From Candidatus Stoquefichus sp. (GTDB lineage Bacteria > Bacillota_I > Bacilli_A > Erysipelotrichales > Coprobacillaceae): DNA of 64,000 nucleotides. The notes under the pieces are model-generated. The model did no database searches. It was not told the DNA's origin and saw only the letters and a list, made by a program, of their open reading frames with translations. Numbering within the stretch: the stretch's first letter is position 1; each line of letters starts with the position of its first letter. Location of the stretch: positions 62,001 through 126,000 of the forward strand of contig JAETUM010000003.1 in the NCBI GenBank assembly GCA_021768625.1, in the 5' to 3' direction. A program made the position numbers and the translations under genes. Positions 37,667 through 54,981 of this stretch are shown in pieces.

Positions 37667-37668
37667 CT

Positions 37669-38220: not shown

Positions 38221-38235
38221 GTCTCGTCATCCTCC

Positions 38236-38403: not shown

Positions 38404-38470
38404 CTGAAATACCCTTCTGAATATCTAAAAATTGTTATGAGCGTTCAGGGTTATATACCCTTTTGATTTC

Positions 38471-38550: not shown

Positions 38551-38567
38551 CATTCATCAATTCGCAG

Positions 38568-38666: not shown

Positions 38667-38667
38667 C

Positions 38668-39048: not shown

Positions 39049-39077
39049 CTTTTTCACCTCCATCTGGACATAACAAA

Positions 39078-39107
39078 AGCCTCTGTGGGATTGCTCCTAC
39101 AAAGGCT
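39078..39107 (-). terminator. Hairpin upstream of the HNH gene (possible terminator)
   Basis: The minus strand has an 11-bp stem AGCCTTTGTAGG/CCCACAGAGGCT with one mismatch, followed by TTTGTT. It may end the early transcript coming from the helicase genes or separate it from the packaging genes. Confidence 0.5.
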
Positions 39108-39183
39108 CTGTTGTATTTATATATTTTTCTACAATACCATTTTACATCATTTCGGTATGAATGGGGAGTGGCCTAGGGGTGAT

Positions 39184-39597
39184 CTAGGGGTGTCCTCTTT
39201 CAAAACTGTCCAATGCACGTCTATGTAGTTTCTTTGTCCAACGCAGTGAGTAATGCATTCGAACAGAAATATCTGGCATTGATAAAAATTCCAAGTACCT
39301 ATATCTTAGAATCATCTGTTCCATTGGATCTTCCACAACATCAATTGCATTGTCCACTTCGGTTTTAATCTCATCAAGCTTTTTATAATCTTCAGCAATC
39401 TCTCGCTCTAGATCATCTATCTTTTCTAAGTAGCGAACAAAGGGAGCTTTTGTATTTTGATTGCTTGAAAAATGCTCCTCGAATCCCGGTGATGATGGAC
39501 TACACGATAATTCTCTGTAAAATCCGAGCTTAATTTTCTTATCGTTAATCTTGTTATTTAGAATGAACGGTCTGTTCAGATAATCTTTAGCCGTCAT
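39184..39597 (-). CDS. DUF1492-type sigma-like late activator
   Basis: The ATG at 39597 (MTAKDYLNRPFILNN) follows GGAGG; a GTG 9 bp upstream is less likely. The 137-residue protein has a coiled-coil middle (RYLEKIDDLEREIAE) and a C-terminal sigma-70 region 4-like helix-turn-helix (MILRYRYLEFLSMPDI). These ArpU/DUF1492 proteins are thought to switch on late genes. It lies between the replication genes and the packaging module, as expected for a late activator. Confidence 0.8.
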   Translation of the reverse strand: MTAKDYLNRPFILNNKINDKKIKLGFYRELSCSPSSPGFEEHFSSNQNTKAPFVRYLEKIDDLEREIAEDYKKLDEIKTEVDNAIDVVEDPMEQMILRYRYLEFLSMPDISVRMHYSLRWTKKLHRRALDSFERGHP

Positions 39598-40948
39598 AAG
39601 CACCACCTCCTATTCTCGCCTTAACCGCATCAATAAGATCTGTCTGTGTTTTCTCTTTGAGCCTTAATGCCTTCATCACATCTTCATCAATGGTATCCTT
39701 TGAAATAATGTGGTGTATGACAACCGTGTATTTCTGCCCCTGTCTCCATAACCTTGCATTGGTCTGCTGATAGAGTTCCAATGACCAGGTAAGACCGAAC
39801 CATATAAGGGTCGACCCACCACTTTGCAAATTCAAGCCATGTCCAGCACTCGCAGGATGGATAACAGCAATCGGTATCTCGCCATTATTCCAATCCCTGA
39901 TATCCTTTGAAGTCTTGATTTCACGAACCTTGAATCTTTCTCTGATTCGCTCCAAATCGTGGTTATACCAATAAGCCACAAGTACAGGCTTGCCATTTGC
40001 ACCTTCAATCAAGTCCTCAAGCGCATCCAGCTTACGGTCATGAATATGAAAGACCTCTTTTTCTTCGTTATAGATAGCACCATTGGCCATCTGCAGAAGT
40101 TTGCCTGAAAGAGTAGCTGCATTTGCAGCATCAATCTCTTCATCTTCCAAAGACACAACCATTTCCTGCCTTAATTCGTCATATACAGACCATTCCTTTT
40201 CTGAAAGCTTTACTTCCACTTCGTTCATAATGCATTCAGGCATTTTAAGAAAATCTGCCGACTTCATAGAAATCGTTATATCCGATATCAGTCTGTAGAT
40301 GGCATCTTCCGCACCTAGTCTTGGTTTGTAGGAAAATATTATCTGCTGATTTCGTTTATCCGGCACAAAGAAATTCATACGATAATGTGTGATATATCTT
40401 CCGAGCCTTTCTCCCATGTCAAGGATTCTGAACTCTGCCCATAAATCCATAAGTCCATTACTGCTTGGAGTTCCTGTAAGACCCACGATTCTTTTTACCT
40501 TTGGTCTTACTTTAAGAAGGCTCTTGAATCGTTTAGCCGATGCAGACTTGAATGACGATAATTCATCAATGACAACCATATCGAAATCGAATGGAAATCC
40601 ACTCTTATTGATAAGCCAGTCCACATTTTCTCTGTTGATCAGATAGATACCTGCACTTTTTCTTAATGCCTCTTTTCGCTCCGACTCTGTACCTATGACC
40701 ACCGAATAGGTCAGTCCTTTTAAGTGATCCCACTTTTCTATTTCAGCAGGCCATGTATCTCTTGCTACTCGAAGGGGTGCAATGACCAGAACCTTTCCTA
40801 CTTCAAATCTGCTATAGAGAAGTTCAAAGATTGCCGTTAAGGTAATCACACTCTTTCCGAGTCCCATTTCTAAAAGAACTGCTGCCACAGGATGTTCCAG
40901 CACAAAGTTTGTTGCATAAGTCTGATAATCATGAGGATTGTATTTCAT
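39587..40948 (-). CDS. SNF2-family DEAD/DEAH helicase
   Basis: The start MKYNPHDYQTYATNFVL (40948) follows GGGGGTG. The 453-residue SF2 helicase has Walker A in LLEMGLGKSVITL, a DEAH-type VIDELSSFK, motif III GLTGTPSSNG and motif VI QTNARLWRQGQK. It acts in phage replication, probably unwinding or remodelling DNA with the primase. It overlaps the VRR-NUC gene by 20 bp, which fits a nuclease-helicase partnership seen in many phages. Confidence 0.93.
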   Translation of the reverse strand: MKYNPHDYQTYATNFVLEHPVAAVLLEMGLGKSVITLTAIFELLYSRFEVGKVLVIAPLRVARDTWPAEIEKWDHLKGLTYSVVIGTESERKEALRKSAGIYLINRENVDWLINKSGFPFDFDMVVIDELSSFKSASAKRFKSLLKVRPKVKRIVGLTGTPSSNGLMDLWAEFRILDMGERLGRYITHYRMNFFVPDKRNQQIIFSYKPRLGAEDAIYRLISDITISMKSADFLKMPECIMNEVEVKLSEKEWSVYDELRQEMVVSLEDEEIDAANAATLSGKLLQMANGAIYNEEKEVFHIHDRKLDALEDLIEGANGKPVLVAYWYNHDLERIRERFKVREIKTSKDIRDWNNGEIPIAVIHPASAGHGLNLQSGGSTLIWFGLTWSLELYQQTNARLWRQGQKYTVVIHHIISKDTIDEDVMKALRLKEKTQTDLIDAVKARIGGGAYDG

Positions 40949-41210
40949 CAATGACACCCCCAATCACATCAGTGTTATCAACCACATAGCAGGGAAAACC
41001 CAAAGCTGATAACTGTTTCATTCTTCTTTTCTGTAAGGCTCTTGGTTTCTTACCGGGAGCCTTGAGTTCTATAAAAGCCATTCTCCCTTTTGGAAGAAGA
41101 ACCAGTCTGTCCGGCACTCCGTCAAATCCGGGAGATGTAAATTTGATGCAGAAACCACCTGCAAGCTTTACAGCCTTTACAAGTTTCTGCTCTACTTCTT
41201 TTTCACGCAT
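40929..41210 (-). CDS. VRR-NUC domain nuclease
   Basis: The start MREKEVEQKLVKAV (41210) is placed because GGAGGTG precedes it. The 93-residue protein is a stand-alone VRR-NUC (PD-(D/E)XK) with PGFDGVPDRLVLL and FIELKAPGKKPRA as active-site motifs. Stand-alone viral forms act as structure-specific nucleases. It lies next to the SNF2 helicase and the primase, all in the replication module. Confidence 0.92.
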   Translation of the reverse strand: MREKEVEQKLVKAVKLAGGFCIKFTSPGFDGVPDRLVLLPKGRMAFIELKAPGKKPRALQKRRMKQLSALGFPCYVVDNTDVIGGVIDEIQSS

Positions 41211-41243
41211 TCGTGCCACCTCCATCAATGCTGAATTTGATGG

Positions 41244-41342
41244 TGTGACAGGGTAAGACTGTCATTTCCTATACTTTATATATAGACTTAATTTTTTTAC
41301 TCTATAGAAAAGGATAGTAAATAGCCGTCATTAACTGTCACA
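41244..41342 (-). repeat. 99-bp palindromic element, copy c
   Basis: The third equal-length copy, 10 bp after the primase stop. The outer ends TGTGACAG and CTGTCACA pair perfectly, although their sequence differs from copy a, which suggests pairing is under selection. The core CTATAGAAAAGGATAGTA is unchanged. Confidence 0.85.
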
Positions 41343-41352
41343 CCTACTGTCA

Positions 41353-43608
41353 TTACTCTTCTTCCATAAAGTCCGTCTTGAGTCTTAAGCCTTTAATGTA
41401 TCTGCCTTTACGGTCACGGTATCTTTCAAATCCGACTGTTTCCAAAGCTGTGTAGAAATCTGTTGTACTTCTTGTAAACTCACCCACCTGGGTACAGAAG
41501 ATTCGATACTCGTTATATACCTCGCTCGACTTTGCCACATAGGCAGGATCAAGTTCGCAGCGTTCACTTAAGAAGTAGGAAAGACAGTCATTACTCTCCT
41601 TATAATGCTCAATCGCATCACGCACCTTCTGTGGAGGGTCGATCTTGTAATTGTCTGCGATTACTTTTCTTGCACCCTCGATAACCCATGTAAGGATTGC
41701 ACCACCTGCCTTTTCAAACAGATAGTCTGCATAGTTCTTGATATCAGCACTTCCTTCAATCTTGGCATCAAACGGAATAACGATAAGTCTTCTCCAGGTA
41801 CCCTTATCAATCGCACCGACCTTTGGCAGATGGTTGGTATAAAGCACAAGTGTATGTGTCGGAGTATATGAGAACGGATCTTTATACTTCTTCTCAGCAT
41901 AGATCTCATCGGTAGAACAAAGCTGTTTAACATTTGCAGTATTCAATCTCATGCCTTCTTCCAGCTCTGCTGCAATAAGCATTCTCTTACCCTTTGCCTC
42001 GGCAAGTTCCGGCTTGACATTTCTTCTGCATCCAACGGTCAGCATATCCGCAGAAATGTTTCCTGAATATGTACCAAGGACTCTTGCGATAACATTCCAG
42101 AAGGTAGACTTACCATTGCGACCTTCTCCATATGCAATAATGAGTGCCTCCACATACACCTTGCCGATTGCTGACAAGCCAACCATTCTCTGAATATAAT
42201 CGATAAGGTCGGTATCCTTTAAAAAGAAGGTATCAAGTGCAGCTGCCCAGATATCTGCACCATCACTTGATGGGTCAACGGTTGTCTGCTTTGTGATGAA
42301 ATGCTCTGGTCTGTGTTCCATCGGAAACTTGGTGCCCTGTCTTAGATCATAGGTAAGAGTCGGTGTGTTCAGCATGAACTCATCAGCATCAAGGTTTCTC
42401 TGTTCCACTTCAAGCATCGGACGAGCCTCTTTTAATGTGGCTGCTATGTTCTTTGTATCTCTTCGCTTAATGGCATATTTCTTATAAGCCACAGCATCTT
42501 CATACATCTCGTAGGCATGAACCTGCTGCTTGTTAAACATCTGAACAGCTTTCTTCGGACCCACGGATACAAGAATCTCCATGCCACCATTCTTTACAAG
42601 TTCATCCATAGCCTTCTTCATTTCAGTTTCAGCCTCTGCAAGCTGTCTTTCTGTCAAGTCCTGGGAAACACCCTGGGACTTTGGTTTTGACTCTTCCCAG
42701 AAACTGCCGTTGTAGACCATGTAATCAGTCGATGGAGAATAGCGAAGAATGTCCTTATACTCGGTTGCAAGAACCGTAGCCTGTCCCACATCGGAGAAGT
42801 CTTCCGGCTTTAATCTGCAGTCGGAGTTGTACTGTTCAGGTGGAATGTATCCTTCCTGGTTCGATACCTTGTTACCGAACTTTGATGCACTTCTCCATAT
42901 CACCTTGAGTTCGCTTTCAGGAAGTGGTGGATTACAGAGTTCTGCCTTCTTAAGGAATATCTGATAAGCCTCTTCTGTATTTCCGTATCTCTTGATAATC
43001 TTTCCTGAAATATGACTCATGGTGCTGTTACGCTGACCCTCCGGCACCTGCTCAAGACTTGCATCGAAATCTGCAAAATCATCCTCTTCCAGATAATCAA
43101 GAATGGTTTTATCACCTTCATAGAACTCCACTTCATCAGAGTCATTACCATAAAGGAATCTTGCAGAGTCTAATGCGTTGGTATCGTAATAAGGGAAAGC
43201 ATCAGCTATCTTTCGTTTCATGGCTGCATACTTTTCTCCGTCCGTTACCTTTGGTATAGGGAAGAACACATGAAATCTTGGTCTTGCCGATTTGTCACCC
43301 TTTGGAAGGTTGTGGTGTCTGCTGTAAGATGCAGCGAAAACAACTCCCGGAATTGAAAGTGCAATATCAAAAGGAGTAAGCCAGTCTTCCGGGTTCTCTG
43401 AATGGTCATTGTCACAGTCAAGAGGAATACAGTCGGAGGATTCAAAGTTATCCTTACTGCGATAGTTTCCTTTATACTTTGCAGTGACATGATCCATCTT
43501 GGTTGCTGCAATAAAGGACTCTTTATCCGTTACAATATTCTTATTGGGATACAGACAGTTACCGCTGTTGCCGACACAGTCTGCTGAATAAACAGTAAAA
43601 TTAATCAT
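41353..43608 (-). CDS. P4-type phage/plasmid primase-helicase
   Basis: This 751-residue protein has an N-terminal primase-like half (CIPLDCDNDHSENPEDW, YSRHHNLPKGDKS, ARFLYG) and a C-terminal SF3 helicase with Walker A YGEGRNGKSTFW and sensor segment LVLYTNHLPKV. It opens and primes phage DNA. The start follows AAGGAGG. It overlaps the DUF4406 gene by 8 bp. The 99-bp element follows its stop. Its polymerase partner is at 10-12 kb, an unusual separation. Confidence 0.93.
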   Translation of the reverse strand: MINFTVYSADCVGNSGNCLYPNKNIVTDKESFIAATKMDHVTAKYKGNYRSKDNFESSDCIPLDCDNDHSENPEDWLTPFDIALSIPGVVFAASYSRHHNLPKGDKSARPRFHVFFPIPKVTDGEKYAAMKRKIADAFPYYDTNALDSARFLYGNDSDEVEFYEGDKTILDYLEEDDFADFDASLEQVPEGQRNSTMSHISGKIIKRYGNTEEAYQIFLKKAELCNPPLPESELKVIWRSASKFGNKVSNQEGYIPPEQYNSDCRLKPEDFSDVGQATVLATEYKDILRYSPSTDYMVYNGSFWEESKPKSQGVSQDLTERQLAEAETEMKKAMDELVKNGGMEILVSVGPKKAVQMFNKQQVHAYEMYEDAVAYKKYAIKRRDTKNIAATLKEARPMLEVEQRNLDADEFMLNTPTLTYDLRQGTKFPMEHRPEHFITKQTTVDPSSDGADIWAAALDTFFLKDTDLIDYIQRMVGLSAIGKVYVEALIIAYGEGRNGKSTFWNVIARVLGTYSGNISADMLTVGCRRNVKPELAEAKGKRMLIAAELEEGMRLNTANVKQLCSTDEIYAEKKYKDPFSYTPTHTLVLYTNHLPKVGAIDKGTWRRLIVIPFDAKIEGSADIKNYADYLFEKAGGAILTWVIEGARKVIADNYKIDPPQKVRDAIEHYKESNDCLSYFLSERCELDPAYVAKSSEVYNEYRIFCTQVGEFTRSTTDFYTALETVGFERYRDRKGRYIKGLRLKTDFMEEE

Positions 43609-44041
43609 ATTCTCCGACCTCCTTCAAATCCTGGGTAAACCATCTGATCTTCATTCTTCTTTTCTTGGCAACACCAATCTCACGAGCCATACCTCGGCTA
43701 ATCACACCACCGAAAACCCAGACCTCTGTGCATTTGCCAAGAAGTACATAATTGAAATGCATAGCTATCTCTCTTTCAGCCTCATTACAATCATTCATGA
43801 ACTGGGGATATAAAAGATGAGGTGTTACCGGGATAGCATTTTCATCAACAGCGAATCTGCTGTATCGTTTTGCGTTCATAACATTGGTTTCAACATCACC
43901 TGCATATGGACTGCATACATACACCAAAGGAAGATAGGCAGCCTTTTTATCAGCTGCCACTTCCTCACGGTGGATGTTGGTAAGAGCCTCATATGTAGTC
44001 GGGTCGGAATAACCCTCATGATTAAACTTATCAATGCCCAT
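43601..44041 (-). CDS. DUF4406-type nucleoside deoxyribosyltransferase-like protein
   Basis: The 146-residue protein has a small Rossmann-like fold with PLVYVCSPYAGDVETNV near residue 38 and CTEVWVFGGVISRGMAREI near residue 105. These are the signatures of DUF4406 and related nucleoside 2-deoxyribosyltransferase-like enzymes. It may act on nucleotides or other small ligands in phage DNA metabolism. It starts after AGGAGG and precedes the primase. Confidence 0.82.
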   Translation of the reverse strand: MGIDKFNHEGYSDPTTYEALTNIHREEVAADKKAAYLPLVYVCSPYAGDVETNVMNAKRYSRFAVDENAIPVTPHLLYPQFMNDCNEAEREIAMHFNYVLLGKCTEVWVFGGVISRGMAREIGVAKKRRMKIRWFTQDLKEVGEYD

Positions 44042-44046
44042 ATCTT

Positions 44047-44814
44047 TTAATCCTCCTGTTCAATGACTGGTAAGATGCCCTCGCTCTTCAGAAGGTCATA
44101 AAGGAAAAGTCTACCCTTCTGTGTCCAATAGGTATGCATCACACTTCTGCTCTCATCAATTGCATAGGTACGTGATTGTGTGTATCCGCATTCTGCATAC
44201 TGCTGATATAAAAGCCATGTCTTTCTGAACTTGTACTGAACCCCAAGTTCATGAAGAAGTTCATTGAACTTGCGACCGCTCATACCGTAGTCCTTTGCAA
44301 TCTGTGTAATAGGAACTGTGTTCTTGTTCTGTAAAATAAGGTCATAGTAGCTTGCCTTTGGCTGCATCTCTGCAATCTGCTGACGCTGAATAAGCGTCTG
44401 ACATTCAAGCTGTTTTCTTCTCTCACGCTCTTCTTTAAGCTGTGTAAGTGCTGCAATCGCAAGATCAGGATTTTCCAAAATCTCATCGATAGCATACATT
44501 CCATGCTTACGGATAGCCGGAAGAACCTCTGCCGTTACCCAATGTTTGAACTTCTTCGCATTAGGCATCTTGCTTGAAAGGATAAGACTGTAAAGACCTG
44601 ACTCATTGATAATGATGGTTTCCTTATCCTGGTTACCATCAAAAAGCATGACCTTATGTCTGTCCTCTTCATCTACATGGCGGTTGATATCTCGACTACC
44701 GTTCTGGTACCCGAGAATGTCTGCTACATCCTTGCCGACAAACATAATCTCACCGTTTACAGTTGCTGTTCTTACAGAGCCAAACTCTGTGCTGTTAAAT
44801 ACTTGTAATTCCAT
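44047..44814 (-). CDS. Phage antirepressor (Bro-N and KilA-C domains)
   Basis: The ATG at 44814 (MELQVFNSTEFGSVRTAT) follows GAAGGAGG. The 255-residue protein has an N-terminal Bro-N domain (FVGKDVADILGYQN, LYSLILSSKMPNAKKFKHW) and a C-terminal KilA-C/ANT domain (VPITQIAKDYGMSGRKFNELL). Such proteins bind DNA and can relieve repression. It is the gene directly after the repeated RNA motif copy D, hence a good candidate for translational control by it. Confidence 0.92.
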   Translation of the reverse strand: MELQVFNSTEFGSVRTATVNGEIMFVGKDVADILGYQNGSRDINRHVDEEDRHKVMLFDGNQDKETIIINESGLYSLILSSKMPNAKKFKHWVTAEVLPAIRKHGMYAIDEILENPDLAIAALTQLKEERERRKQLECQTLIQRQQIAEMQPKASYYDLILQNKNTVPITQIAKDYGMSGRKFNELLHELGVQYKFRKTWLLYQQYAECGYTQSRTYAIDESRSVMHTYWTQKGRLFLYDLLKSEGILPVIEQED

Positions 44815-44859
44815 ACGAATTACCTCCTTCAAAATAGAATTTCCTTGGAGGTGTCACCC

Positions 44860-44897
44860 TCCTACCTGGTAGCCTTGGGAGAAGGGTTAAAAGGACG
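44860..44897 (-). ncRNA. Repeated structured RNA motif, copy D
   Basis: The minus strand has ACGTCCTTTT, then an 11-nt arm ACCCTTCTCCC, loop AAGGCTACCA and return arm GGTAGGAGGGT (10 pairs, one mismatch). It overlaps the last codons of the sigma-like gene (Thr-Ser-Phe-stop) and lies upstream of the antirepressor. The arms differ in sequence from copy A but still pair, which supports a conserved structure. Confidence 0.6.
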
Positions 44898-45402
44898 TTT
44901 TTGAAAAAACTTTTTTTAATTTGTTGATTGCACGTCTATAACGATGACTGACATTGTTGGCATCCTCATCGATTGAGGCTGCATACTCGCCAACGGTGTA
45001 TCCGTCTAGTGCAATGGCAATAACCATATCTGCCACTGCAGGTTTAAGAAGACTTCTCAAAGTTTCACAGCATTCTTCGTATTCAAGCTGGTTATGTACT
45101 CCGTCAATAGAACTGTTAAAGGCTGACTTATCAGCTGCTCTGTACATAATTGCTTCTTCTGTATTGACCTCAACTGTTCCGTCCTTGCTTTTCATATAAG
45201 CGTTGCCAGTATGACGGTCATGCTTGTGCCAGCTGTTGTAATCGGGTCTGTTGAACCTTTCCTCGATTACATCCTGGATTCTCTGTTCGTAATCTTCCTG
45301 ACTCTCTTCTTCTGTGATGGAGATGTTTAACCACTTTTCAATCTCCTTTGTTTCAACCTCTAAGGTTTGGTATGCATCCTCATAACGCATCTTGATTTTC
45401 AT
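44887..45402 (-). CDS. Sigma-70-like phage regulator
   Basis: This 171-residue protein ends with a region 4-type helix-turn-helix (MVIAIALDGYTVGEYAASID, NVSHRYRRAINKLKKVF) typical of small phage sigma-like activators. The N-terminal half is acidic, with HKHDRHTGNAYMKSKDG. The last codons (KTSF, stop) belong to the repeated RNA motif copy D. Its 5' region is the structured RNA at 45450-45600. It may control early or middle genes; this is inference. Confidence 0.75.
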   Translation of the reverse strand: MKIKMRYEDAYQTLEVETKEIEKWLNISITEEESQEDYEQRIQDVIEERFNRPDYNSWHKHDRHTGNAYMKSKDGTVEVNTEEAIMYRAADKSAFNSSIDGVHNQLEYEECCETLRSLLKPAVADMVIAIALDGYTVGEYAASIDEDANNVSHRYRRAINKLKKVFSKTSF

Positions 45403-45449
45403 AAAGTTCCTGCCTTTCTGCCTGATTCTCAGCAGTTAGGCAATGGGAA

Positions 45450-45600
45450 CAAATAAAGGCCGGTGCTTGTAGAAGTACCGACCCGAAAAAAGCCTGAAAA
45501 GGGCATAAGGAAATAAGGGTACTTCTATCGCACCTTTCACAGGTTGTCCTGTAGATGGTGCCGATATCTGTATCCCAATGCCCTTATAGCTAATCAGGCC
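45450..45600 (-). ncRNA. Pseudoknot-capable structured leader RNA with two U-tailed hairpins
   Basis: In minus-strand order: an outer stem GCCTGA/TCAGGC and inner stem AAGGGCAT/ATGCCCTT enclose a GCACC/GGTGC hairpin with ACAGG/CCTGT on top and the single strand TAGAAGTACC. Six T residues follow the outer stem. A second hairpin (GGTCGGT/ACCGGCC) has GGTACTTCTA overlapping its 5' arm and loop, which pairs perfectly (10 bp) with the TAGAAGTACC above, and is followed by TTTATTT. This looks like a switch with mutually exclusive pairings ahead of the sigma-like gene. Confidence 0.6.
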
Positions 45601-45674
45601 TTGTGATATTAATTACTGAGTGATGTTCTCACCTTATATAACGATTCTTGATTTCGTTAACTGGGGTCACATCG

Positions 45675-45691
45675 GAGTTATTGCTTAACTC
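45675..45691. promoter_or_regulatory. Inverted repeat, candidate operator between divergent genes
   Basis: GAGTTA-TTGCT-TAACTC is a perfect 6-bp inverted repeat in the space between the leftward early transcript and the rightward DUF6076-type gene. It could bind the lysogeny regulator, which is not identified. Confidence 0.4.
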
Positions 45692-45775
45692 TGTAATAAG
45701 TATAATTAACTGCAAAAAGTAATTGAAGATAGCAAGTTTTCACATAACTTTTACAGATTAGTAATGTTAGAAGTG

Positions 45776-45804
45776 TTGTATTTTAGGTCGCAAACGAGTA
45801 TAAT
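45776..45804 (+). promoter_or_regulatory. Promoter of the DUF6076-type gene
   Basis: TTGTAT (45776-45781) and TATAAT (45799-45804) are 17 bp apart, about 100 bp upstream of the gene start at 45903. Confidence 0.65.
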
Positions 45805-45902
45805 TAGTACAATAGATATAATTTGCCATTACTATTTTTAGGCAAAAAAAAATAAAACCATGACATATGCCATGACTTTTCAACCATAGAAAGGAGCCAA
45901 AA

Positions 45903-47048
45903 ATGCCCCAGATTAAAGAAAATTTTTTTGAAAATATTTTATTTAAGTTCGAAAGTTGCAGCTGTGATTGCGTTGAAGATATAGAACACGTTGCTCCCGG
46001 AGAAGAACCTATCAGCAAATTCAAATTGCAGGCTATGCCGGAACACCCTATTCTTTTTGGCTACGCAGCTAAAGATGGCTTGGTTCGTATTGCACCCAAT
46101 GGAACAATCGAAGAAAGAAACATTCTCGGTACTCTGATGTCTCTTGCAAATAAACCCACCAAGGAACTCGTATCATTTTTGAAAGACAATGGTTTTCTAT
46201 TTCCGGTTTGCGCAGACACCTATGAAGTATTTGATGAGATATCTTTATACGGAATAATCAACAGACTGAAAATGACAGTTGAGTTAATGACTGCTGCCAA
46301 TGAAATAAGAAAGAATTATAAGAAGATTTGCGACTTGACGATTTCTTTACTGTTCTCTGAGGATCTTGCTATAAAAACCGACTCAATGAAAAACAGCTAC
46401 TCCAGCTGTCATCATAAATATGTAGATACACTTATGAGTCCACCTGTTCAGTTGTCTTACAGCAGACAGCAACAAGCATTCGATGGAGACACTTATAACA
46501 TAATTGATTGTGTATACGGTTCTTATGCTCTGAACATCCAGGATTACAATAATATTATTGGTGGCTACTCTTCTGTTCCGGGATATCAGAACGGATTCTA
46601 TCAAAATATTACTTCGATGTTTGTTAATTATGAAAAGCAGGATATGACCAAGAAAATCTCTGACTTCCTGTTCCATTTCCTTTATGAAATGCACGGAGAC
46701 AGTTCCCAGGAATTCTCTGATGAAATGAAGTCGGTACTGATTGAAATTGCAAAGTACATAATTGGAGAAGAAATCAACGCTAATCTTGATGGCATCCATC
46801 CTGTTTATAATTCAGAAACAATGACACCATCATGGAAAGTAGATTCACTTCTTTGTGCAGCTTACTTCTCCATCTTCTATTTGAAACCAGACCTTGAATT
46901 ATATCGTCCTTGCGATAATCCTAGATGTGGCCGTTACTTCCTTGTAAAGACTACTTCAACAAGAAATCGTTTCTGCAGCCAGGAATGCTGCAACAGAGTC
47001 ACACAAGACCGTTACCGAAAAAGGAAAAGAGAAAAAGAAGGCTTATAA
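45903..47048 (+). CDS. DUF6076-like protein with C-terminal CGNR-type zinc finger
   Basis: This 381-residue protein is the only complete rightward gene within the prophage. The first ~320 residues are not recognised in detail (MPQIKENFFENILFKF start; acidic helical body). The C-terminus has RPCDNPRCGRYF, then NRFCSQECCNRVTQDRYRKR, a four-Cys CGNR-like zinc finger with a basic tail, as in many DNA-binding regulators. It has its own promoter and a terminator, so it is expressed apart from the lytic genes. It may be the lysogeny regulator or a lysogenic conversion gene; neither is proven. The ribosome site is AAAGGAG. Confidence 0.6.
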   Translation: MPQIKENFFENILFKFESCSCDCVEDIEHVAPGEEPISKFKLQAMPEHPILFGYAAKDGLVRIAPNGTIEERNILGTLMSLANKPTKELVSFLKDNGFLFPVCADTYEVFDEISLYGIINRLKMTVELMTAANEIRKNYKKICDLTISLLFSEDLAIKTDSMKNSYSSCHHKYVDTLMSPPVQLSYSRQQQAFDGDTYNIIDCVYGSYALNIQDYNNIIGGYSSVPGYQNGFYQNITSMFVNYEKQDMTKKISDFLFHFLYEMHGDSSQEFSDEMKSVLIEIAKYIIGEEINANLDGIHPVYNSETMTPSWKVDSLLCAAYFSIFYLKPDLELYRPCDNPRCGRYFLVKTTSTRNRFCSQECCNRVTQDRYRKRKREKEGL

Positions 47049-47055
47049 GAAAAGA

Positions 47056-47087
47056 ACCTCTGTCTGCAATCATCTGCAAACAGAGGT
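47056..47087 (+). terminator. Terminator between convergent genes
   Basis: ACCTCTGT/ACAGAGGT forms an 8-bp stem with a long loop and TTTTAT after it on the plus strand. It ends the DUF6076-type gene; the reverse strand has TTCTTTTC and could also stop the leftward restriction operon. Confidence 0.75.
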
Positions 47088-47113
47088 TTTATAATATTGT
47101 GCTATTTTTATAT

Positions 47114-48493
47114 TTATTCTACACCATATGAGTCACTGTCTTCTGCAACCATTGAATTAACAGGCTTTATGCCCACATAAGATACTGGTTTCGGAACAGG
47201 TGCCTGTCCTGTAGATTTAATTTCATCTCTTCCAAGAACTGCTTCGATACATTCGGCCAGGGCTACTTTTTCCTTTGTCGGTTTACCGGAATAATGATAC
47301 ATAAGATATCTCGTATCCATAACGATTCCCTGGATTCGTTCATAGTACTTCTTATTGTATCTCCAGTCACCAACTGCCTCACCAATGTTGCCGACAACAG
47401 ATGTCAGTTTGAAATGGTTCTTTGCCATATTGTATGGCATAATGAAAGCATTGAATAATGAGTTCGTATCTACACCTTTATATTTTTCCAGGTACTCACC
47501 ATATGTAATCTGCTTATTGATTGATGAACCATTAGGCAGATGATCTGGAATGCCTGTCCAACCATACTTATAACACTTGGCATCAAGAATGTAATACTTG
47601 CCATTGTAAATCATAATGGTATCCGGCATCAAAGGTCTCTTTTCCTTGTACTTGCCGTAATCAAGTAGCCATCTTGAACGAGGGAAATATTTGTCCTTAT
47701 CCTTTTCTCCGAATGCTCTATCAACAAGTTTCTCCCACACATGGTCGAAATCATCAGTGCCAAAGTAGAACTGCTTATCAGATGTCTGCTCATCTATGTA
47801 CTCAAGCATATCTTTCATACCACGAAATAGTGACTTCTTCTTATCATCGTTTGTGTTAGCAAGCTTACTCTGAACAATTCTGATTGAAGTTTTCACATCT
47901 GGGTGTGGTCCCGGTTCTTCCGGCATATATGGAACATATAGCCATCCCAGTCTTTTGAAAGCCTCATACACACAAAATCTGTTAATCTGAGTTATTTCCT
48001 TTGTATCATTAGGTGTTGAAGAACGAACCTCAAACTGTGTAAACACAAAAGAACTTACACCATTTCTGCTTTGAACTAGAGGCATCTGTTTTCTTGCGGT
48101 TCTCGCCCAGTCCTGTTTTCCAGTGGGTGCTGTGATATACACTTGCTCCTTCTCAACATAATATGTGCCACCAATCGAAAAATAGTATTCAATGACACTC
48201 TTATACGCATTGATAGGAAAATCAACTGTCTGTGGTGCTGCAAACTTATTGATAGCAAGCAATCGGTCATCCTTTGTTGTAAATTCAGACAGCACTTGTA
48301 TCAAATGCTTAATGTCTGTTCTGATTTCAGCATCGGTTTCCGGCAGTTCATATCCGATAGGGAAATAGACCATAGCATTATCGGAATCAGCCTTGATACC
48401 AACAAAACGGTCACCATCTTCATTTGTATTAACATGGCAGTGCTTTTTGATATCAAATTCCATTATTGAATTTAAAGCTGAGCCTAAATCCAT
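47114..48493 (-). CDS. LlaJI-type restriction endonuclease subunit (R2)
   Basis: This 459-residue protein fits the LlaJI restriction subunit family. The nuclease core has LMPDTIMIYNGKYYILDAKCYKYGW, with Asp and DAK as a PD-(D/E)XK site. The N-terminal half probably binds the partner or DNA (KFAAPQTVDFPINAY, KMPLVQSRNGVSSFVF-like segment). It is encoded after the McrB-like subunit, in the order M-M-R1-R2 of LlaJI. Together with R1 it should cleave DNA with unmethylated sites in a GTP-dependent way. It starts after GGTGAGG. Confidence 0.85.
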   Translation of the reverse strand: MDLGSALNSIMEFDIKKHCHVNTNEDGDRFVGIKADSDNAMVYFPIGYELPETDAEIRTDIKHLIQVLSEFTTKDDRLLAINKFAAPQTVDFPINAYKSVIEYYFSIGGTYYVEKEQVYITAPTGKQDWARTARKQMPLVQSRNGVSSFVFTQFEVRSSTPNDTKEITQINRFCVYEAFKRLGWLYVPYMPEEPGPHPDVKTSIRIVQSKLANTNDDKKKSLFRGMKDMLEYIDEQTSDKQFYFGTDDFDHVWEKLVDRAFGEKDKDKYFPRSRWLLDYGKYKEKRPLMPDTIMIYNGKYYILDAKCYKYGWTGIPDHLPNGSSINKQITYGEYLEKYKGVDTNSLFNAFIMPYNMAKNHFKLTSVVGNIGEAVGDWRYNKKYYERIQGIVMDTRYLMYHYSGKPTKEKVALAECIEAVLGRDEIKSTGQAPVPKPVSYVGIKPVNSMVAEDSDSYGVE

Positions 48494-48507
48494 CTATCCT
48501 CACCACC

Positions 48508-50694
48508 TTACTCTTCTTCTGCTCCAGTAAACGCACTCTGCACATTATCTTTGAAAACCTTAAATCGATCTAATCCCTTGGCATACATAAATGCACGGAT
48601 TACCTGCTCAAGGCTCTGATATTCGGTAACCTCAAAGATTACTTCACGGTTAAACTTGAATGCGTCATCCCAGAGATACTTGATTACCTTTTCAGGGAAC
48701 TTTCTGTTCTGTCTCATAGCATCACGGATAACGGCAATCTGTGTCTTTTCTTCTGGTGTAAGAGTACCTTTGCTTTCCTTTTTACGAAGTGCATCGTATT
48801 CTTTTAAATCACCCATCGCATCATTAAACTTAAGGTCACGAAGATGAACGAAGTATGCACCAAGTCTCTTATCTTCTGCAGAAGTCATTCTTGCACTGTT
48901 TCCAACAACAATTCTATTAATCTCAACGCAGAAATTTCTCCATGTTACTGTAGTATCAAGAATTTCTGCATTTGCAAGTGTCGGGTCAACATTTTCAAAA
49001 TCATTTTCGATAAGACGCATATCCCATCTCCGCTGGAATGCTGTATCTAATGTGAAAACATTCTGATCTGATGTATTCATTGTTCCAATGATAGAAAGAT
49101 TTGAAGGAATACGAACCTTATCTGTCTTTCTTTCCTTACCATACATTTCTTCAGCAATATTCATATTTGTGATGCCGTACTCACTTGTTCCAACAGGGAA
49201 ACCATCATCATCTATATCACGGATCTCAACCTTACGGTCAAGCAGCTGGAATACCTCACCGAAAATAGCCGGAGCATTACCACGGTTGATTTCCTCGATA
49301 ATAAGGATATATTCAGTACCTGGATTATTATATGACTCACGAAGAATGTTTGTAAAAGGACCAGGTGTAAACTTATAGCTTACCTGTCCGTCTTCCGCTA
49401 CTGCAGGGAGAATCTGACCAATAAAGTCTGAATACGTGTAGTCAGGATGAAATACAAGTCTTTCTACAACACTTCCTGGCTTGCAATACTCATGCTCAAT
49501 AGTCCAGCTCTTACCAGAACCCGGAACACCGTAAAGAAGAACATTTTCTCCAGAAGACAATCTTATTGCTTCTAAATCAATTTCTTCCTTTTCATTCTGC
49601 TCCCCGGATTCTACACTAGAAATATCCTGCAGCATTTCGTTAAGGAATTTCTCGTACCACTTTAAGCCAGTGCTTAAAAATCTGTTGTTACAAGCTTTAT
49701 TCACTTCTTCGTAATCAGGATGGCTTTGAATGATATTCTTTACTTCAACAAAAACATCCATGTCCACGATTTCAAAAATACTTTCTAAATCTGGATACTC
49801 AGCAATTTCCATCAAAGAGCAAACTTTCTTCAATGCACTACAGTTATTGCTTATCATACTGGCAGTACAAGGAGTTCCGTTTACGGTTACCTGCTTAGCC
49901 ATCCATGCACGAAATTTCTTTTCATTGTCATCTTCATTATTATCATTTTCAAAATCAAACGATGAAGCATCGATAATATCTTTATCAATATTATAAATCT
50001 TTAGATTTCTGAGTCTTGACTGATACTTCTTTAGCACCTCATCTGCAATTACAATATGTTTACCATTACTTGCATTTGCAGACTCGTCTTCAGCTAAAAA
50101 GCCCCATCTAACGAGTATCATAATTGGTTTACAATCTGCATATTTATTCGCTTCATCACCTAGCTGAATTGGGCCCTGGCTACGCAATTTGCGAAGTTCC
50201 TGAAGAGAATCTGTATAATTTGCTCCAAGGTCTTCCAGTTTCCATAACAGCCAAGCAAATTCTCTATAGGTCAAATACCCTAAATCAAGAATTGCTCTTA
50301 TGAATAAAGTAGGCGGTTCGATATCTGTATTGCTATCTGGACATCCATAATTATCTCTACCAAACTTCACCTGTTCCAAAGCTTCCAACAGTACTTCTTG
50401 CACCTTTTCTGTATCGTTTTTTTGCAAAGCTTCATACATTTGCTTTCCCGAAGGTGTAATTCTTCTAAATGACTGAGGATTACGAATATCCTGCCATACA
50501 GTAAATCCAAAATATGATGTGATTTGTGCTTTTTTTGTATATGACGAAGAGTACTGATCATCTCCTATCAAAGCTTTCAATCTTGTTTTATATGAATCAT
50601 TTGGAATCCAATCATTTGCTTCGTAATATATCTTTAGAACAGATTCTATCTCATTTAATAGCGCACTGTTCTTTGGCATAACTATTTTTCCCAT
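48508..50694 (-). CDS. McrB-like GTPase subunit of the LlaJI-type system (R1)
   Basis: This 728-residue protein has an N-terminal ~380-residue DNA-binding/regulatory part and a C-terminal McrB-type AAA+ GTPase. The latter has Walker A LLYGVPGSGKSWT (~residue 390), Walker B YILIIEEINRGN, and the McrB signature IGTMNTSDQ (~540). It would translocate DNA and drive cleavage by the downstream nuclease subunit. It lies 15 bp after the second methylase and 14 bp before R2. GTPase subunit plus PD-(D/E)XK subunit plus two C5 methylases is the LlaJI set. Confidence 0.9.
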   Translation of the reverse strand: MGKIVMPKNSALLNEIESVLKIYYEANDWIPNDSYKTRLKALIGDDQYSSSYTKKAQITSYFGFTVWQDIRNPQSFRRITPSGKQMYEALQKNDTEKVQEVLLEALEQVKFGRDNYGCPDSNTDIEPPTLFIRAILDLGYLTYREFAWLLWKLEDLGANYTDSLQELRKLRSQGPIQLGDEANKYADCKPIMILVRWGFLAEDESANASNGKHIVIADEVLKKYQSRLRNLKIYNIDKDIIDASSFDFENDNNEDDNEKKFRAWMAKQVTVNGTPCTASMISNNCSALKKVCSLMEIAEYPDLESIFEIVDMDVFVEVKNIIQSHPDYEEVNKACNNRFLSTGLKWYEKFLNEMLQDISSVESGEQNEKEEIDLEAIRLSSGENVLLYGVPGSGKSWTIEHEYCKPGSVVERLVFHPDYTYSDFIGQILPAVAEDGQVSYKFTPGPFTNILRESYNNPGTEYILIIEEINRGNAPAIFGEVFQLLDRKVEIRDIDDDGFPVGTSEYGITNMNIAEEMYGKERKTDKVRIPSNLSIIGTMNTSDQNVFTLDTAFQRRWDMRLIENDFENVDPTLANAEILDTTVTWRNFCVEINRIVVGNSARMTSAEDKRLGAYFVHLRDLKFNDAMGDLKEYDALRKKESKGTLTPEEKTQIAVIRDAMRQNRKFPEKVIKYLWDDAFKFNREVIFEVTEYQSLEQVIRAFMYAKGLDRFKVFKDNVQSAFTGAEEE

Positions 50695-50709
50695 AGTAAC
50701 TCTACTCCT

Positions 50710-51855
50710 TTACTTTAGCTGCGCTAATAAAGCCAGCATTATTTCTCTTACTAATTTCGAAGGAATACCTTCTCCAAATACTTTCCTAATAAGCGTATCA
50801 CTTGCCCATTCAGGAATAGGCCAATCGAGGGGCAAGGACATCACTATCAATAATTCATAAATGGACAGCACTCTCGGATCTGAATATAAAGTCTCTCCTG
50901 TATCAGATTGATAAGCATTTCCTGGATGAACGCAGGCTAATGACGAAATCACTCCATTATTTTGTGTAATTGTTCTGCACGGCATATCCCACTTCAATCG
51001 TCTGTAATGATTATGATGTGCCTTAACGGGTGTTCCATCAGCTTTTTGTGGATAATAAACTTCGTTATATATTGCTGATTTACCACTTGGAGTATGCATC
51101 ATCCATTCAACCTGTTTCCATGAATGGGTAGGAGGATAATGCCATTTTGAAACTGCTAGCCCTGCCGCCTTTTTCTTTTCAAAATCAGGGAATTTCTCCA
51201 AAGTTTTCTTAATTCCATCTCTCAGATACGGATCTAAGGATGGCAAACCTCCTATAGCTTCTCTAAGTGTTATTTCCCTTTGCTTTTCAGGAAATTCCCA
51301 AGTTACTCCCTGAATATCTTTTCTAACCAATAGAAATATATTACGTTCTCTTAGTTGTGGCACACCATAATCCTTTGCCATTACCAAAGTTTCTTTATTA
51401 AATTTATAGTTTTCTCCAAGTTCTCTTTTTATGTACTCTGGAATTAAAACAATTTCATTTTCACATTTTATCTTTGTGGTTAATTGTTTTGGTACATTTT
51501 CCATAAACACAAATTTAGGTTTAATTCTTTTAATCACATCAATAGCGTAAGATATCAATTGATTTCTCGGATCCAATTCCAAACGAAGACCTGCCTCACT
51601 CATACCTTGACACGGTGGTGTCGCTATTACAAAATCAACATTTTTTTGTATCGCTTCATTCACAATACCTTCTCTGACCTCATCATCTGTTATGTCTCCA
51701 CAAACCATATGTGTACCTTTGTAAACATCTTGATAAAAATGCGCTCTATCTTTATCGATTTCATTAGCGAGTATGATGTCTACACCAATATCTTTCATAT
51801 ATGCCTCTGCTATTCCTACATTTGCAAACAAAGACAAGCCTCTCAAATTCGACAT
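50710..51855 (-). CDS. C5-cytosine methyltransferase M2 of the LlaJI-type system
   Basis: This 381-residue enzyme starts MSNLRGLSLFANVGIAEAYM (motif I) and has ATPPCQGMSEAG (motif IV, catalytic Cys), FVFMENVP (VI) and RERNIFLLV (VIII). It probably methylates one strand of an asymmetric site; LlaJI-type enzymes recognise GACGC. The paralogous M1 lies 11 bp upstream. The start follows AGGAG. It should protect the host and prophage from the R1/R2 nuclease. Confidence 0.92.
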   Translation of the reverse strand: MSNLRGLSLFANVGIAEAYMKDIGVDIILANEIDKDRAHFYQDVYKGTHMVCGDITDDEVREGIVNEAIQKNVDFVIATPPCQGMSEAGLRLELDPRNQLISYAIDVIKRIKPKFVFMENVPKQLTTKIKCENEIVLIPEYIKRELGENYKFNKETLVMAKDYGVPQLRERNIFLLVRKDIQGVTWEFPEKQREITLREAIGGLPSLDPYLRDGIKKTLEKFPDFEKKKAAGLAVSKWHYPPTHSWKQVEWMMHTPSGKSAIYNEVYYPQKADGTPVKAHHNHYRRLKWDMPCRTITQNNGVISSLACVHPGNAYQSDTGETLYSDPRVLSIYELLIVMSLPLDWPIPEWASDTLIRKVFGEGIPSKLVREIMLALLAQLK

Positions 51856-51866
51856 TTTTAATGCTC

Positions 51867-53264
51867 CTATTTCAAGTTTTCAAAAACTTTTTTAACAAAT
51901 AATGGCGGAATTCCCTCGCCGATTATTCTTCTTAAAAAAGCCTCTGATGTATCATCCGGTACAGGCCAGTTGTCTGGAATGCTCATAATTTTCATAAGCT
52001 CATACAAAGTCAAAGCCCTTGCATCCGAATAAATATCATCACCATTTTCATCAACATATTCCTTAACTCCAGGATGCACATTATTTTGTGATGAAATTTT
52101 CCGATTATCCATTGTAACTGTATAAGCGGGAGTATCCCAATTTTGACGCTTATAAGTATTCCTAAATCCTTTGACAGGCTTTCCATCAGCTTTTATTGGA
52201 TAATAAACCTCATTATCAAAAGCAGTTTGCCCGGTCGGTGTATGTTGCATCACAATGACTTGACGTTTAATGTGATGCGGTGGAATGTGCCATTTTGAGA
52301 TTTTTTCAGCCTGTTTTGCTCGTTCATAATAGTGAGGAACAATCTCAAGCAACTCTTTTTCGTCAACATCGGTAATAAACGGATCCAATTTTGGTAAATT
52401 ACCAATTGCATCTCTCATAGTAATCACAACATCATCTTTCAAGGGAACTAGCCATTCTAATTCTTGGTCTTTTCTTGTCATCAAAACGATAGCTCGCTCT
52501 CTAGTTTGTGGTACTGAATAGTCTTTAGTGTCGATTACTGCCTTGTGTATAATATAGTCTTTACCAAGTTCTTCATTTAAAAGGTCAGGAATTAAGATTT
52601 TTCTATCTCCAGCCCATATTTCAGTATTAAAGAAGGCTGGAACATTTTCGATCATTACATACTTAGGTCTAACTTCCTTGACAGCCTCAATAACCTGACA
52701 CACTAATCTATTTCTTACATCATCCGCCAATTGTTGACCAACGGTACTCATACCTTGGCAAGGTGGTGTAGCCATTATAATATTGACGCCTGCATCAATA
52801 GATTCTTTTACAATTTTTTCAAATATTTTCTTATTTGTAATATCTCCACATATCATATGCGTATCTGGGTAAATCTTTGAATAGAGAATTGCTCTTCTCT
52901 CAATTAATTCGTTAGCCACAACAACATCAAACCCTATTTCTTTCAAATAGGCTTCAGCAACCCCAATATTGGAAAACAAGGATAATACCTTCATATTGTT
53001 TTTCCTTTCGCTACGAACTTGTATTTCTTGTGCATTAGCAAACTCGAAATATAGCTTTACTGCTTTTTTTATCTGCGAGCGAACTGTTGTTGACAAAGCT
53101 TGATATTCATCAACTTGTTCCAGCTGGTATTGATACATAGTGTCATTAAACCAAGTCAACATACCATCTGCCCTTCTAAATCTTGAAACAGTGTTGCTAA
53201 TCACTTTGTTTGAATAGTTTTTATTCTCAGTAAGCCATAGCTTAAAATTGCTTAAATCATTCAT
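51867..53264 (-). CDS. C5-cytosine methyltransferase M1 of the LlaJI-type system
   Basis: The start MNDLSNFKLWLTENKNYSN (53264) follows GGAGGAG. The 465-residue protein has an extra N-terminal domain of ~90 residues (TVSRFRRADGM, SQIKKAVKLYFEFANAQE) ahead of the C5 methylase core, which has LSLFSNIGVAEAYL (I), ATPPCQGMST (IV) and MIENVPAF (VI). The extension is helical and may bind DNA, fitting the M1-type role of regulating its own operon. First gene of the operon, with GACGC in its promoter. Confidence 0.92.
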   Translation of the reverse strand: MNDLSNFKLWLTENKNYSNKVISNTVSRFRRADGMLTWFNDTMYQYQLEQVDEYQALSTTVRSQIKKAVKLYFEFANAQEIQVRSERKNNMKVLSLFSNIGVAEAYLKEIGFDVVVANELIERRAILYSKIYPDTHMICGDITNKKIFEKIVKESIDAGVNIIMATPPCQGMSTVGQQLADDVRNRLVCQVIEAVKEVRPKYVMIENVPAFFNTEIWAGDRKILIPDLLNEELGKDYIIHKAVIDTKDYSVPQTRERAIVLMTRKDQELEWLVPLKDDVVITMRDAIGNLPKLDPFITDVDEKELLEIVPHYYERAKQAEKISKWHIPPHHIKRQVIVMQHTPTGQTAFDNEVYYPIKADGKPVKGFRNTYKRQNWDTPAYTVTMDNRKISSQNNVHPGVKEYVDENGDDIYSDARALTLYELMKIMSIPDNWPVPDDTSEAFLRRIIGEGIPPLFVKKVFENLK

Positions 53265-53303
53265 AGAATCTCCTCCGCAAATACACAAAGATTGTTCTAT
53301 TGT

Positions 53304-53332
53304 ATTATATCATATCCCTTTTGTGGCGTCAA
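53304..53332 (-). promoter_or_regulatory. Promoter of the LlaJI-type operon
   Basis: On the minus strand TTGACG (53327-53332) and TATAAT (53304-53309) are 17 bp apart. The -35 box overlaps the right arm of the GACGC inverted repeat, so methylation or methylase binding there could control transcription. Confidence 0.85.
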
Positions 53333-53345
53333 GTATTTGACGCCA
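53324..53345. promoter_or_regulatory. GACGC-containing inverted repeat (methylation-sensing operator candidate)
   Basis: TGGCGTCAA and TTGACGCCA are perfect 9-bp arms around GTAT. Each arm carries a GACGC site (53326-53330 as GCGTC; 53339-53343), the LlaJI recognition sequence. One arm overlaps the -35 box. Confidence 0.8.
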
Positions 53346-53847
53346 TTTTTCGAATTGTATTAACGCCAATTTTAGGTTTGAAACTATATTTAATTTTATC
53401 AGTTATCACCAACTCTACCTACACAACCTATATTATTTCAATCCTGTCAACTTAACCATGAGGTTTACCGACCATGGATATGTTATGGCATAAAACAAAA
53501 AAATCCGAGAGCCGGGGTTTAAACCCCTACTCTCGAACCCAATTTATTCAAAATTTCCCCGTATATTACATTATTGGTATTACTTCGCCATTAACACGAC
53601 ATCCTCCACATACATCGCTGCACGGCTCAATATTTTATATGCTTAAATGAATTATTAGATATTTATCCTGAATACATTTCAAATCTCATAACTTCAATAT
53701 TTTAATCTGCTCAACCTTAAATCAACACTTCTGTCTATCCAACCATAAAATCACCTTGATTTTTCGGGCATTTACGAAACTTATTTTGTCTTGGAATTGC
53801 AATGCTGAAAATTGAAAAAAACCTTATTTTAAGCTATTTTTATACCC
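53346..53847. other. Prophage-chromosome junction region, no gene seen
   Basis: About 500 bp of AT-rich DNA without a convincing ORF. It holds a strong leftward terminator (53506-53535) and a possible stand-alone RNA in front of it. The right attachment site should lie here, but no clear core repeat with the left end is visible apart from an 11-bp match (see findings). Confidence 0.5.
53506..53535 (-). terminator. Strong intrinsic terminator in the junction region
   Basis: The minus strand folds CGAGAG..GGGG/CCCC..CTCTCG around a TTTAAA centre and is followed by seven T residues. It is over 300 bp past the rlmD-type gene, so it may terminate that transcript or an RNA gene in between. Confidence 0.85.
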
Positions 53848-54981
53848 TTACTTCTGTACCTTAGTCAACAATACTACCGTCTCCACATGTTGTGTATGTG
53901 GAAACATATCATATAAATAAACCTCTTTAAAAGAATAGCCAATCTTTCTAAACTCTTTTAAATCTCTCACTTGAGTATGAGGATCACAAGAAACATAAAC
54001 GACATGTTTAGGATTTAATATACGAATAGCCTGTATAAATTCTTGAGTACTTCCTGCTCTTGGTGGATCCATAATAACACAATCATATTTCATGTCCAAT
54101 GATGCTTGTTTTTTCATAAATTCAGTTGCATCCTGATTATAAAAACGAATATTTTGAATATGATTCATTTTAGCATTATTAATCGCATCTTTATAGGCTT
54201 GTGAATTGAGTTCTACTCCTACTACACTTTTCACATATGATGCAAGAATCATACCAATTGTTCCTATTCCACAATATGTATCCAATACAATATCATTTTC
54301 TTTAGCATCTAAAAGTTGAATTACTTTTTGATATAACTTTGTACATTGTTGATGGTTGATTTGATAAAAAGATTGAGCAGATATTTTAAATGTTAAACCA
54401 CATAACTCATCAACAATAAATCCTTTTCCATACAAAACCTTTTCCTGTTGTGATAAAACAATACTTGTTTGTCTTTTATTAATGTTTAGCACAATTGATT
54501 TTACACTAGGACAAGCTTTGATTAATTCTTGACAAAAATGTTTAGATCCTTTAAAAAGAGAATCATTAACAACTAAAACAACAAGGGTTTGGTTTGTTTG
54601 AATAGCTCTACGAATAAGAACATGACGTAAAAAACCCTTTCTTTTTTTATTATCATAAATAGATATTCTATATTTTCTAAATAAATATTGCAATTGATCT
54701 AATACATGATGAGTTTCCTCATCATGTAATAAACATGTCTTTATAGGAACAATTTTATGACTTTCTTCTTCGTATAATCCATATTCATATTTCTGATTAA
54801 AGGCAACAATGACTTTATTTCGATATGCATATGGATTTTGCATTCCATTGATAGAATGGACTTGTACATGAAAATCCTTATATAATTTTTGATAATAATC
54901 ATATTTTTTTTGAAGTTGTTTTTGATAGTCAATATCTATATATTGACAACTTCCACATTGATGACTCACTTTACATTTCAT
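53848..54981 (-). CDS. TrmA/RlmC/RlmD-family RNA (uracil-5-)-methyltransferase
   Basis: This 377-residue enzyme has the N-terminal Fe-S cysteines (CGSCQY and upstream Cys), SAM motifs DTYCGIGTIGMI and VGVELN, DPPRAGST, and the catalytic YVSCDPHTQ cysteine. It methylates U in 23S rRNA or tRNA; the exact target cannot be set from sequence. The AT-rich codon use and start after AAGGAG mark it as the first clear chromosomal gene right of the prophage. A TRAM domain is not evident. Confidence 0.9.
   Translation of the reverse strand: MKCKVSHQCGSCQYIDIDYQKQLQKKYDYYQKLYKDFHVQVHSINGMQNPYAYRNKVIVAFNQKYEYGLYEEESHKIVPIKTCLLHDEETHHVLDQLQYLFRKYRISIYDNKKRKGFLRHVLIRRAIQTNQTLVVLVVNDSLFKGSKHFCQELIKACPSVKSIVLNINKRQTSIVLSQQEKVLYGKGFIVDELCGLTFKISAQSFYQINHQQCTKLYQKVIQLLDAKENDIVLDTYCGIGTIGMILASYVKSVVGVELNSQAYKDAINNAKMNHIQNIRFYNQDATEFMKKQASLDMKYDCVIMDPPRAGSTQEFIQAIRILNPKHVVYVSCDPHTQVRDLKEFRKIGYSFKEVYLYDMFPHTQHVETVVLLTKVQK

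What the first reader, a model, noticed from the sequence alone, without database searches (positions are those of the whole stretch)
47114..53345. Prophage-borne LlaJI-type restriction system with a GACGC palindrome over its own -35 box
Seen: two C5 methylases, an McrB-type GTPase and a PD-(D/E)XK subunit in M-M-R1-R2 order, preceded by TTGACG/TATAAT. The -35 box overlaps an inverted repeat (53324-53345) in which each arm holds GACGC. Known: LlaJI recognises GACGC, and its expression is controlled by methylation of sites in its own promoter. Inferred: this system has the same self-sensing logic and serves as lysogenic conversion cargo.
Basis: partly seen in the sequence, partly recalled or inferred. 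Interest (0 to 1): 0.72.

Follow-up and report, generated by a model that had tools for sequence, protein, structure and literature searches.

The report
LlaJI restriction cassette in a prophage
A bacterial virus integrated in this bacterium carries a complete DNA-cutting defence system of the known LlaJI type, and its on-switch contains two copies of the DNA word the system itself marks; the same switch is kept across nine diverged lineages, so it is very probably a real self-regulation device.

Summary
On the minus strand lie two C5 methylases, an McrB-type GTPase and the LlaJI nuclease, behind TTGACG-17-TATAAT. TGGCGTCAA-N4-TTGACGCCA (53324-53345) overlaps the -35. This is LlaJI: M1, M2, R1 (GTPase part) and R2 are 66, 77, 56 and 54% identical to pNP40 LlaJI, and pNP40 carries the same repeat at the same place. 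Across nine lineages (window and pNP40 included) the 20-bp repeat is 96% identical, the 56 bp upstream 33%. A search of viral contigs with the repeat alone gave 28 hits, three directly upstream of LlaJI M1 genes, two previously unseen. The full repeat occurs only where M1 has an 87-residue N-terminal domain (model resembles a recombinase DNA-binding domain); three close relatives lacking it have other regulators (RHH fused or separate, or HTH). So M1 autorepression through GACGC sites is well supported by comparison, but methylation sensing is inferred from published LlaJI work. The prophage, of the Phi1207.3/Phi-m46.1 type, ends in an rlmD-like gene; its RM-bearing arm is 99.6% identical to one in Anaerofustis. 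New member of a known kind; such cargo in such prophages was already described.

The parts
53324..53345 (-). operator: inverted repeat TGGCGTCAA-ATAC-TTGACGCCA, one GACGC per arm
   Evidence: conserved in nine lineages
53304..53332 (-). sigma-70 type promoter TTGACG-17-TATAAT; -35 is part of the downstream arm of the operator
   Evidence: same arrangement in relatives
51867..53264 (-). M1, C5 cytosine methylase with N-terminal regulatory domain
   Evidence: 66% to M1.LlaJI over full length
53004..53264 (-). N-terminal domain of M1 (about residues 1-87), all-helical, resembles recombinase core-binding domains
   Evidence: pLDDT 84.7; 2a3v, TM 0.62, prob 0.89, E 1.3: suggestive only
50710..51855 (-). 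M2, C5 cytosine methylase
   Evidence: 77% to M2.LlaJI
48508..50694 (-). R1, McrB-type GTPase with N-terminal recognition region and an extra middle region (about residues 250-370)
47114..48493 (-). R2, LlaJI-family PD-(D/E)XK nuclease subunit
   Evidence: PF09563; 54% to R2.LlaJI
47055..47088 (-). terminator-like hairpin after R2, between the convergent R2 and CGNR genes
45903..47048 (+). CGNR zinc-finger protein gene, convergent, travels with the cassette; role in the system not established
   Evidence: also in Phi1207.3 and Tn6164
6318..53886 (.). prophage (approximate ends); right end at the 3' end of a host rlmD-like gene (53848-54981)

Best explanation
It is a LlaJI restriction-modification cassette carried by a temperate phage. 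Shown: gene content and order, orthology to LlaJI, a promoter whose -35 box lies in one arm of an inverted GACGC repeat, and conservation of that repeat in relatives. Inferred: M1 and M2 each methylate one strand of GACGC/GCGTC. M1, held on the repeat by its N-terminal domain and by its recognition of GACGC, competes with RNA polymerase and represses the whole M1-M2-R1-R2 operon; the methylation state of the two sites, set by M1 and M2, tunes that binding. Early after entry the promoter is open and the methylases, first in the operon, are made first; once enough methylase is present and sites are methylated, expression settles at a low level, so restriction stays matched to protection. R1 binds unmethylated GACGC and R2 cuts, protecting the lysogen from other phages.
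For: Full-length M1 66% identical to M1.LlaJI of pNP40 including the N-terminal domain; the same repeat over the same -35 in pNP40. In nine lineages GGCGTCAA-N4-TTGACGCC is invariant at all 16 specified positions and lies 68-91 bp before the M1 start, with -35 TTGACG and a 17-18 bp spacer; 96% identity in the repeat against 33% in the 56 bp upstream and 48% downstream. All keep G instead of the consensus A at the last -35 position, and all keep the upstream arm, which the promoter itself does not need. DNA-only search with the operator found two unseen LlaJI loci (L050, L063). Of 11 lineages with the M1 N-terminal domain, nine have the full repeat, one a half-site at the -35 (L068-L070) and one has its upstream DNA replaced (L005); relatives without the domain have none. 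The N-terminal slot is taken by other regulators in L072 (RHH fused to M1), L071 (separate RHH) and L073 (separate HTH), with TTGGCGTT-like repeats in the first two. M1.LlaJI is listed as a self-repressing methylase in PMC3978073 and as one with proven regulatory function in PMC3695355; control through recognition sites in the promoter is reported in PMC11779793.
Against: No methylome, binding or expression data for this organism. The R1 recognition region is only 39% identical to LlaJI R1, so GACGC specificity of cleavage is less secure than that of methylation. L005 keeps M1 at 89% identity without the operator, so the operator is not indispensable. Orthologues share ancestry, so the nine lineages are not fully independent. 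The 2005 paper with the LlaJI regulation experiments was not readable here.
Confidence: 0.83

Rival explanations
1. M1 represses through its N-terminal domain, which reads TTGACGCC as an ordinary operator; methylation of the sites has no regulatory role, and the overlap with GACGC reflects only shared recognition.
For: The conserved half-site TTGACGCC is longer than GACGC and symmetric outside it; the N-terminal slot is occupied by RHH or HTH regulators in some relatives, as in M.SsoII and similar methylases that use a separate regulatory domain (PMC3978073).
Against: Both arms keep the exact methylation target; published LlaJI work reports control through recognition sites in the promoter (PMC11779793).
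Confidence: 0.13
2. The palindrome is a chance overlap of a TTGACG -35 box with an inverted repeat and has no function.
For: GACGC is short and TTGACG is one base from the -35 consensus.
Against: Expected 0.01 per 64 kb; invariant in nine lineages with diverged flanks; the repeat alone finds M1 genes.
Confidence: 0.01
3. The regulator is a separate protein, for example a control protein or the CGNR zinc-finger protein at 45903-47048, and the methylases play no direct part.
For: The CGNR gene accompanies many cassettes (window, L004, L006, L008, L011, L066, L068-L070).
Against: No C-protein gene in or just before the operon; pNP40 has the operator but no such gene next to R2; CGNR proteins are only about 30% identical between cassettes whose operators are the same.
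Confidence: 0.03

Closest known systems
LlaJI of Lactococcus lactis plasmid pNP40 (NC_010901; PMC1459862)
   Same: gene order M1-M2-R1-R2, N-terminal domain on M1, GACGC inverted repeat over the -35, same spacing
   Different: R1 recognition region only 39% identical; extra middle region in R1 here (728 against 585 residues); prophage instead of plasmid; CGNR gene downstream here
SpyI cassette of S. pyogenes prophage Phi1207.3 (PMC4260502)
   Same: LlaJI-type GTPase and nuclease followed by a CGNR gene, in the early region of a serine-recombinase prophage of the same kind
   Different: a single, different methylase (M.SpyI, inhibits SmaI restriction); R2 38% to LlaJI; operator not examined here
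Tn6164 module in C. difficile (PMC3485107)
   Same: two methylases, AAA protein, LlaJI nuclease, convergent CGNR gene, then a sigma-like gene and phage genes
   Different: sequence not compared here; promoter not examined
Clocel_4008-4005 of Clostridium cellulovorans (PMC11779793)
   Same: two methylases and two restriction genes, likened to LlaJI by its authors
   Different: authors found no regulatory role of the recognition site there
M.SsoII / M.Ecl18kI autoregulated methylases (PMC3978073, PMC3695355)
   Same: C5 methylase with an N-terminal regulatory domain that represses its own gene
   Different: HTH domain, and an operator that is not the methylation site
McrBC
   Same: GTPase plus nuclease architecture
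   Different: cuts methylated DNA and has no methylases

Membership tests
LlaJI restriction-modification system | two C5 methylases, McrB-like GTPase and PF09563 nuclease in one operon, order M1-M2-R1-R2 | tested here: met
LlaJI restriction-modification system | orthology of all four subunits to pNP40 LlaJI | tested here: met
   66 (M1), 77 (M2), 39 and 56 (R1 N- and C-terminal parts), 54% (R2) identity
LlaJI restriction-modification system | promoter with two inversely placed GACGC sites over the -35 | tested here: met
LlaJI restriction-modification system | methylation and cleavage at GACGC/GCGTC | not testable with these tools
   only indirect: methylase C-terminal blocks 44/50 and 45/50 identical to LlaJI; operator contains GACGC
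LlaJI restriction-modification system | autorepression by M1, affected by methylation | not testable with these tools
   conserved operator; reported for M1.LlaJI
Phi1207.3/Phi-m46.1 type prophages | several serine recombinases, rum/rlmD-type integration site, PolA, primase, SNF2-type helicase, ParB-methylase, HK97-type head genes | tested here: met
   Phi1207.3 itself sits in comEC, Phi-m46.1 in rum
Type IV McrBC | no cognate methylase | tested here: not met
   two methylases in the operon

The most novel reading that the evidence does not exclude
LlaJI systems are built of three exchangeable modules: a GACGC recognition core (M1, M2 and the R1 N-terminus), a cutting module that is swapped (LlaJI R1/R2 type, an McrC type in L007, a diverged type in L009), and a regulator slot at the M1 N-terminus (recombinase-like domain with inverted GACGC operator, RHH with TTGGCGTT repeats, or a separate HTH). 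Regulator and operator change together, and the operator of the first kind is made of the system's own methylation target.
Probability: 0.5. Interest if true: 0.55.

Novelty: new member of a known kind. Interest (0 to 1): 0.42.

Why it matters
Regulation by a system's own target sites was worked out for one plasmid system; the comparison here shows that the switch is conserved among prophage, ICE-like and plasmid copies in several groups of Firmicutes, and gives a simple predictor (M1 N-terminal domain plus repeat) for which LlaJI systems regulate themselves this way. It might explain why none was seen in C. cellulovorans (not tested). The 99.6% identical arm in a distant bacterium shows such cassettes moving recently between unlike hosts.

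Tried and rejected
Common origin of the M1 N-terminal domain and the extra middle region of R1: suggested by eye, not supported (hmmsearch 2 bits, hhalign probability 0.6%). Depletion of GACGC in the prophage: 7 against 16.6 expected outside the cassette, but 19 of 506 5-mers are more depleted, and the shuffle comparison of 15 against 34 for the window keeps only dinucleotides; weak. Named phages with a close M1: none. Fold of the CGNR protein: decent model (pLDDT 80) but no meaningful match in the PDB. Direct repeat of the rlmD end elsewhere in the window: none of 14 bp or more, which fits serine recombinases with short cores. A second phylum sample of 398 genomes gave only Anaerofustis. 25 of the 28 operator hits in viral contigs are not next to LlaJI genes and are taken as chance; this was not examined further.

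Full report
Observation. M1 starts at ATG 53264 behind a plausible ribosome-binding site. The repeat is the only GCGTC-N8-GACGC in the window, against 0.01 expected.

Identity. M1 matches M1.LlaJI of pNP40 at 66% over its full length, M2 at 77%, R2 at 54%; R1 matches at 56% in the GTPase part and 39% in the N-terminal part. R1 here is longer by a middle region of about 120 residues that LlaJI lacks. pNP40 has GGCGTCAAATTCTTGACGCC over its own TTGACG -35. The C-terminal blocks of M1 and M2, which by the general layout of C5 methylases should include most of the target recognition region, are the best conserved stretches, so the methylation target is very likely GACGC, the LlaJI target (PMC1459862).

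Operator as a conserved element. Relatives were collected by protein and, separately, by the operator sequence alone. Nine lineages (window, pNP40 and seven others) carry GGCGTCAA-N4-TTGACGCC at 68-91 bp before M1, with -35 TTGACG and spacing 17 or 18. The repeat is 96% identical, the DNA just upstream 33%. The operator-only search returned 28 loci, of which L050, L051 and L063 lie directly before LlaJI M1 genes; L050 and L063 had not been found before. L002, another Lactococcus plasmid, differs from pNP40 in the unconserved middle of the repeat and keeps both arms.

Who reads the operator. The full repeat was found only where M1 has the N-terminal domain. Exceptions among domain-bearing systems: L068-L070 (57% identical M1, diverged domain) keep only the arm at the -35, and L005 has other DNA upstream of its -10. 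Relatives whose M1 lacks the domain have no such repeat; many of these are distant, and the closest (L071-L073, 57-63% identical) have an RHH domain fused to M1 (L072), an RHH gene just before M1 (L071), or an HTH gene before M1 (L073). L071 and L072 have tandem TTGGCGTT-like repeats at the promoter (the RHH assignments rest on sub-threshold Pfam hits, E 0.009 and 1e-4). The structure model of the window domain is all-helical with good confidence and its best match is the core-binding part of an integron integrase, with lactococcal prophage and staphylococcal integrase N-terminal domains further down the list; the E-values are above 1, so this is a lead. These facts point to the N-terminal slot of M1 as the regulator.

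Cutting module. M1, M2 and the R1 N-terminus stay similar where the rest changes: L007 has the R1 N-terminus at 65% but an McrB-like remainder and a PF10117 McrC, and L009 has 74% at the N-terminus but 33% in the GTPase part and a diverged PF09563 nuclease.

Context. The prophage has terminase, portal, capsid, tail, endolysin, primase and helicase genes and tandem serine recombinases at 6387-9942. Its right end is the last codons of an rlmD-like gene. In Anaerofustis (G001, L004/L035) the same arm, window 53886 to 39538, is 99.6% identical and lies at the end of that host's own rlmD-like gene, while the rest of the prophage is 76-90% identical and the flanks differ: a recent exchange. That the hosts belong to different classes is inferred: genomes of the window's own class read TGA through, as Mycoplasma relatives do, whereas Anaerofustis is by general knowledge a clostridial genus. 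L008 also has its cassette next to an rlmD-like gene; L009 sits among relaxase and coupling-protein-like genes, hence ICE-like. The prophage resembles Phi1207.3 and Phi-m46.1 of S. pyogenes and Terrisporobacter phage TPDSL_ph1. In Phi1207.3 the corresponding cassette is SpyI, also followed by a CGNR gene; Tn6164 of C. difficile has the same order. So LlaJI-type cargo in such elements is not new.

Mechanism. Shown: anatomy, orthology, conserved operator. From the literature: M1.LlaJI represses its own gene; recognition sites in the promoter control the operon; R1 is the specificity subunit and R1 and R2 are both needed. Inferred for this system: GACGC methylation, M1 binding, effect of methylation, phage defence. 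The original 2005 regulation paper was not held.

Verdict. A real, well-preserved LlaJI system with a conserved operator built from its own target: a new member of a known kind. The comparative evidence and the exchange of regulator and cutter modules are the most useful new points.

Noticed in passing
window 39538-53886 and L035 681-15027: 14.35 kb prophage arm 99.6% identical to one in Anaerofustis stercorihominis, rest of the prophage 76-90%: recent exchange between distant hosts
   Followed up: partly
window 45903-47048: CGNR zinc-finger gene convergent with the cassette in most prophage copies, only about 30% identical among them; no PDB fold match
   Followed up: partly
window 6387-9942: two large serine recombinase genes with a short third recombinase-like ORF between them (7965-8387)
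   Followed up: partly
window 33862-36865: further methylases in the prophage: a 581-residue C5 methylase and a ParB-methylase fusion, as in Phi1207.3
   Followed up: no
L072 6911-8200; L071 upstream of 6028: RHH domain fused to, or encoded just before, LlaJI-type M1, with tandem TTGGCGTT-like repeats at the promoter
   Followed up: partly
L005 3360-3522: M1 89% identical but the operator is replaced by unrelated DNA up to the -10: a natural operator loss
   Followed up: no
window 49580-49950: extra middle region of R1, apparently shared with L005 (contig ends within it), different from the one in L050 and L007 and absent from LlaJI
   Followed up: partly
window 53493-53535: hairpin followed by a T-run between the host rlmD-like gene and the cassette (minus strand), possibly shielding it from host read-through
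   Followed up: no
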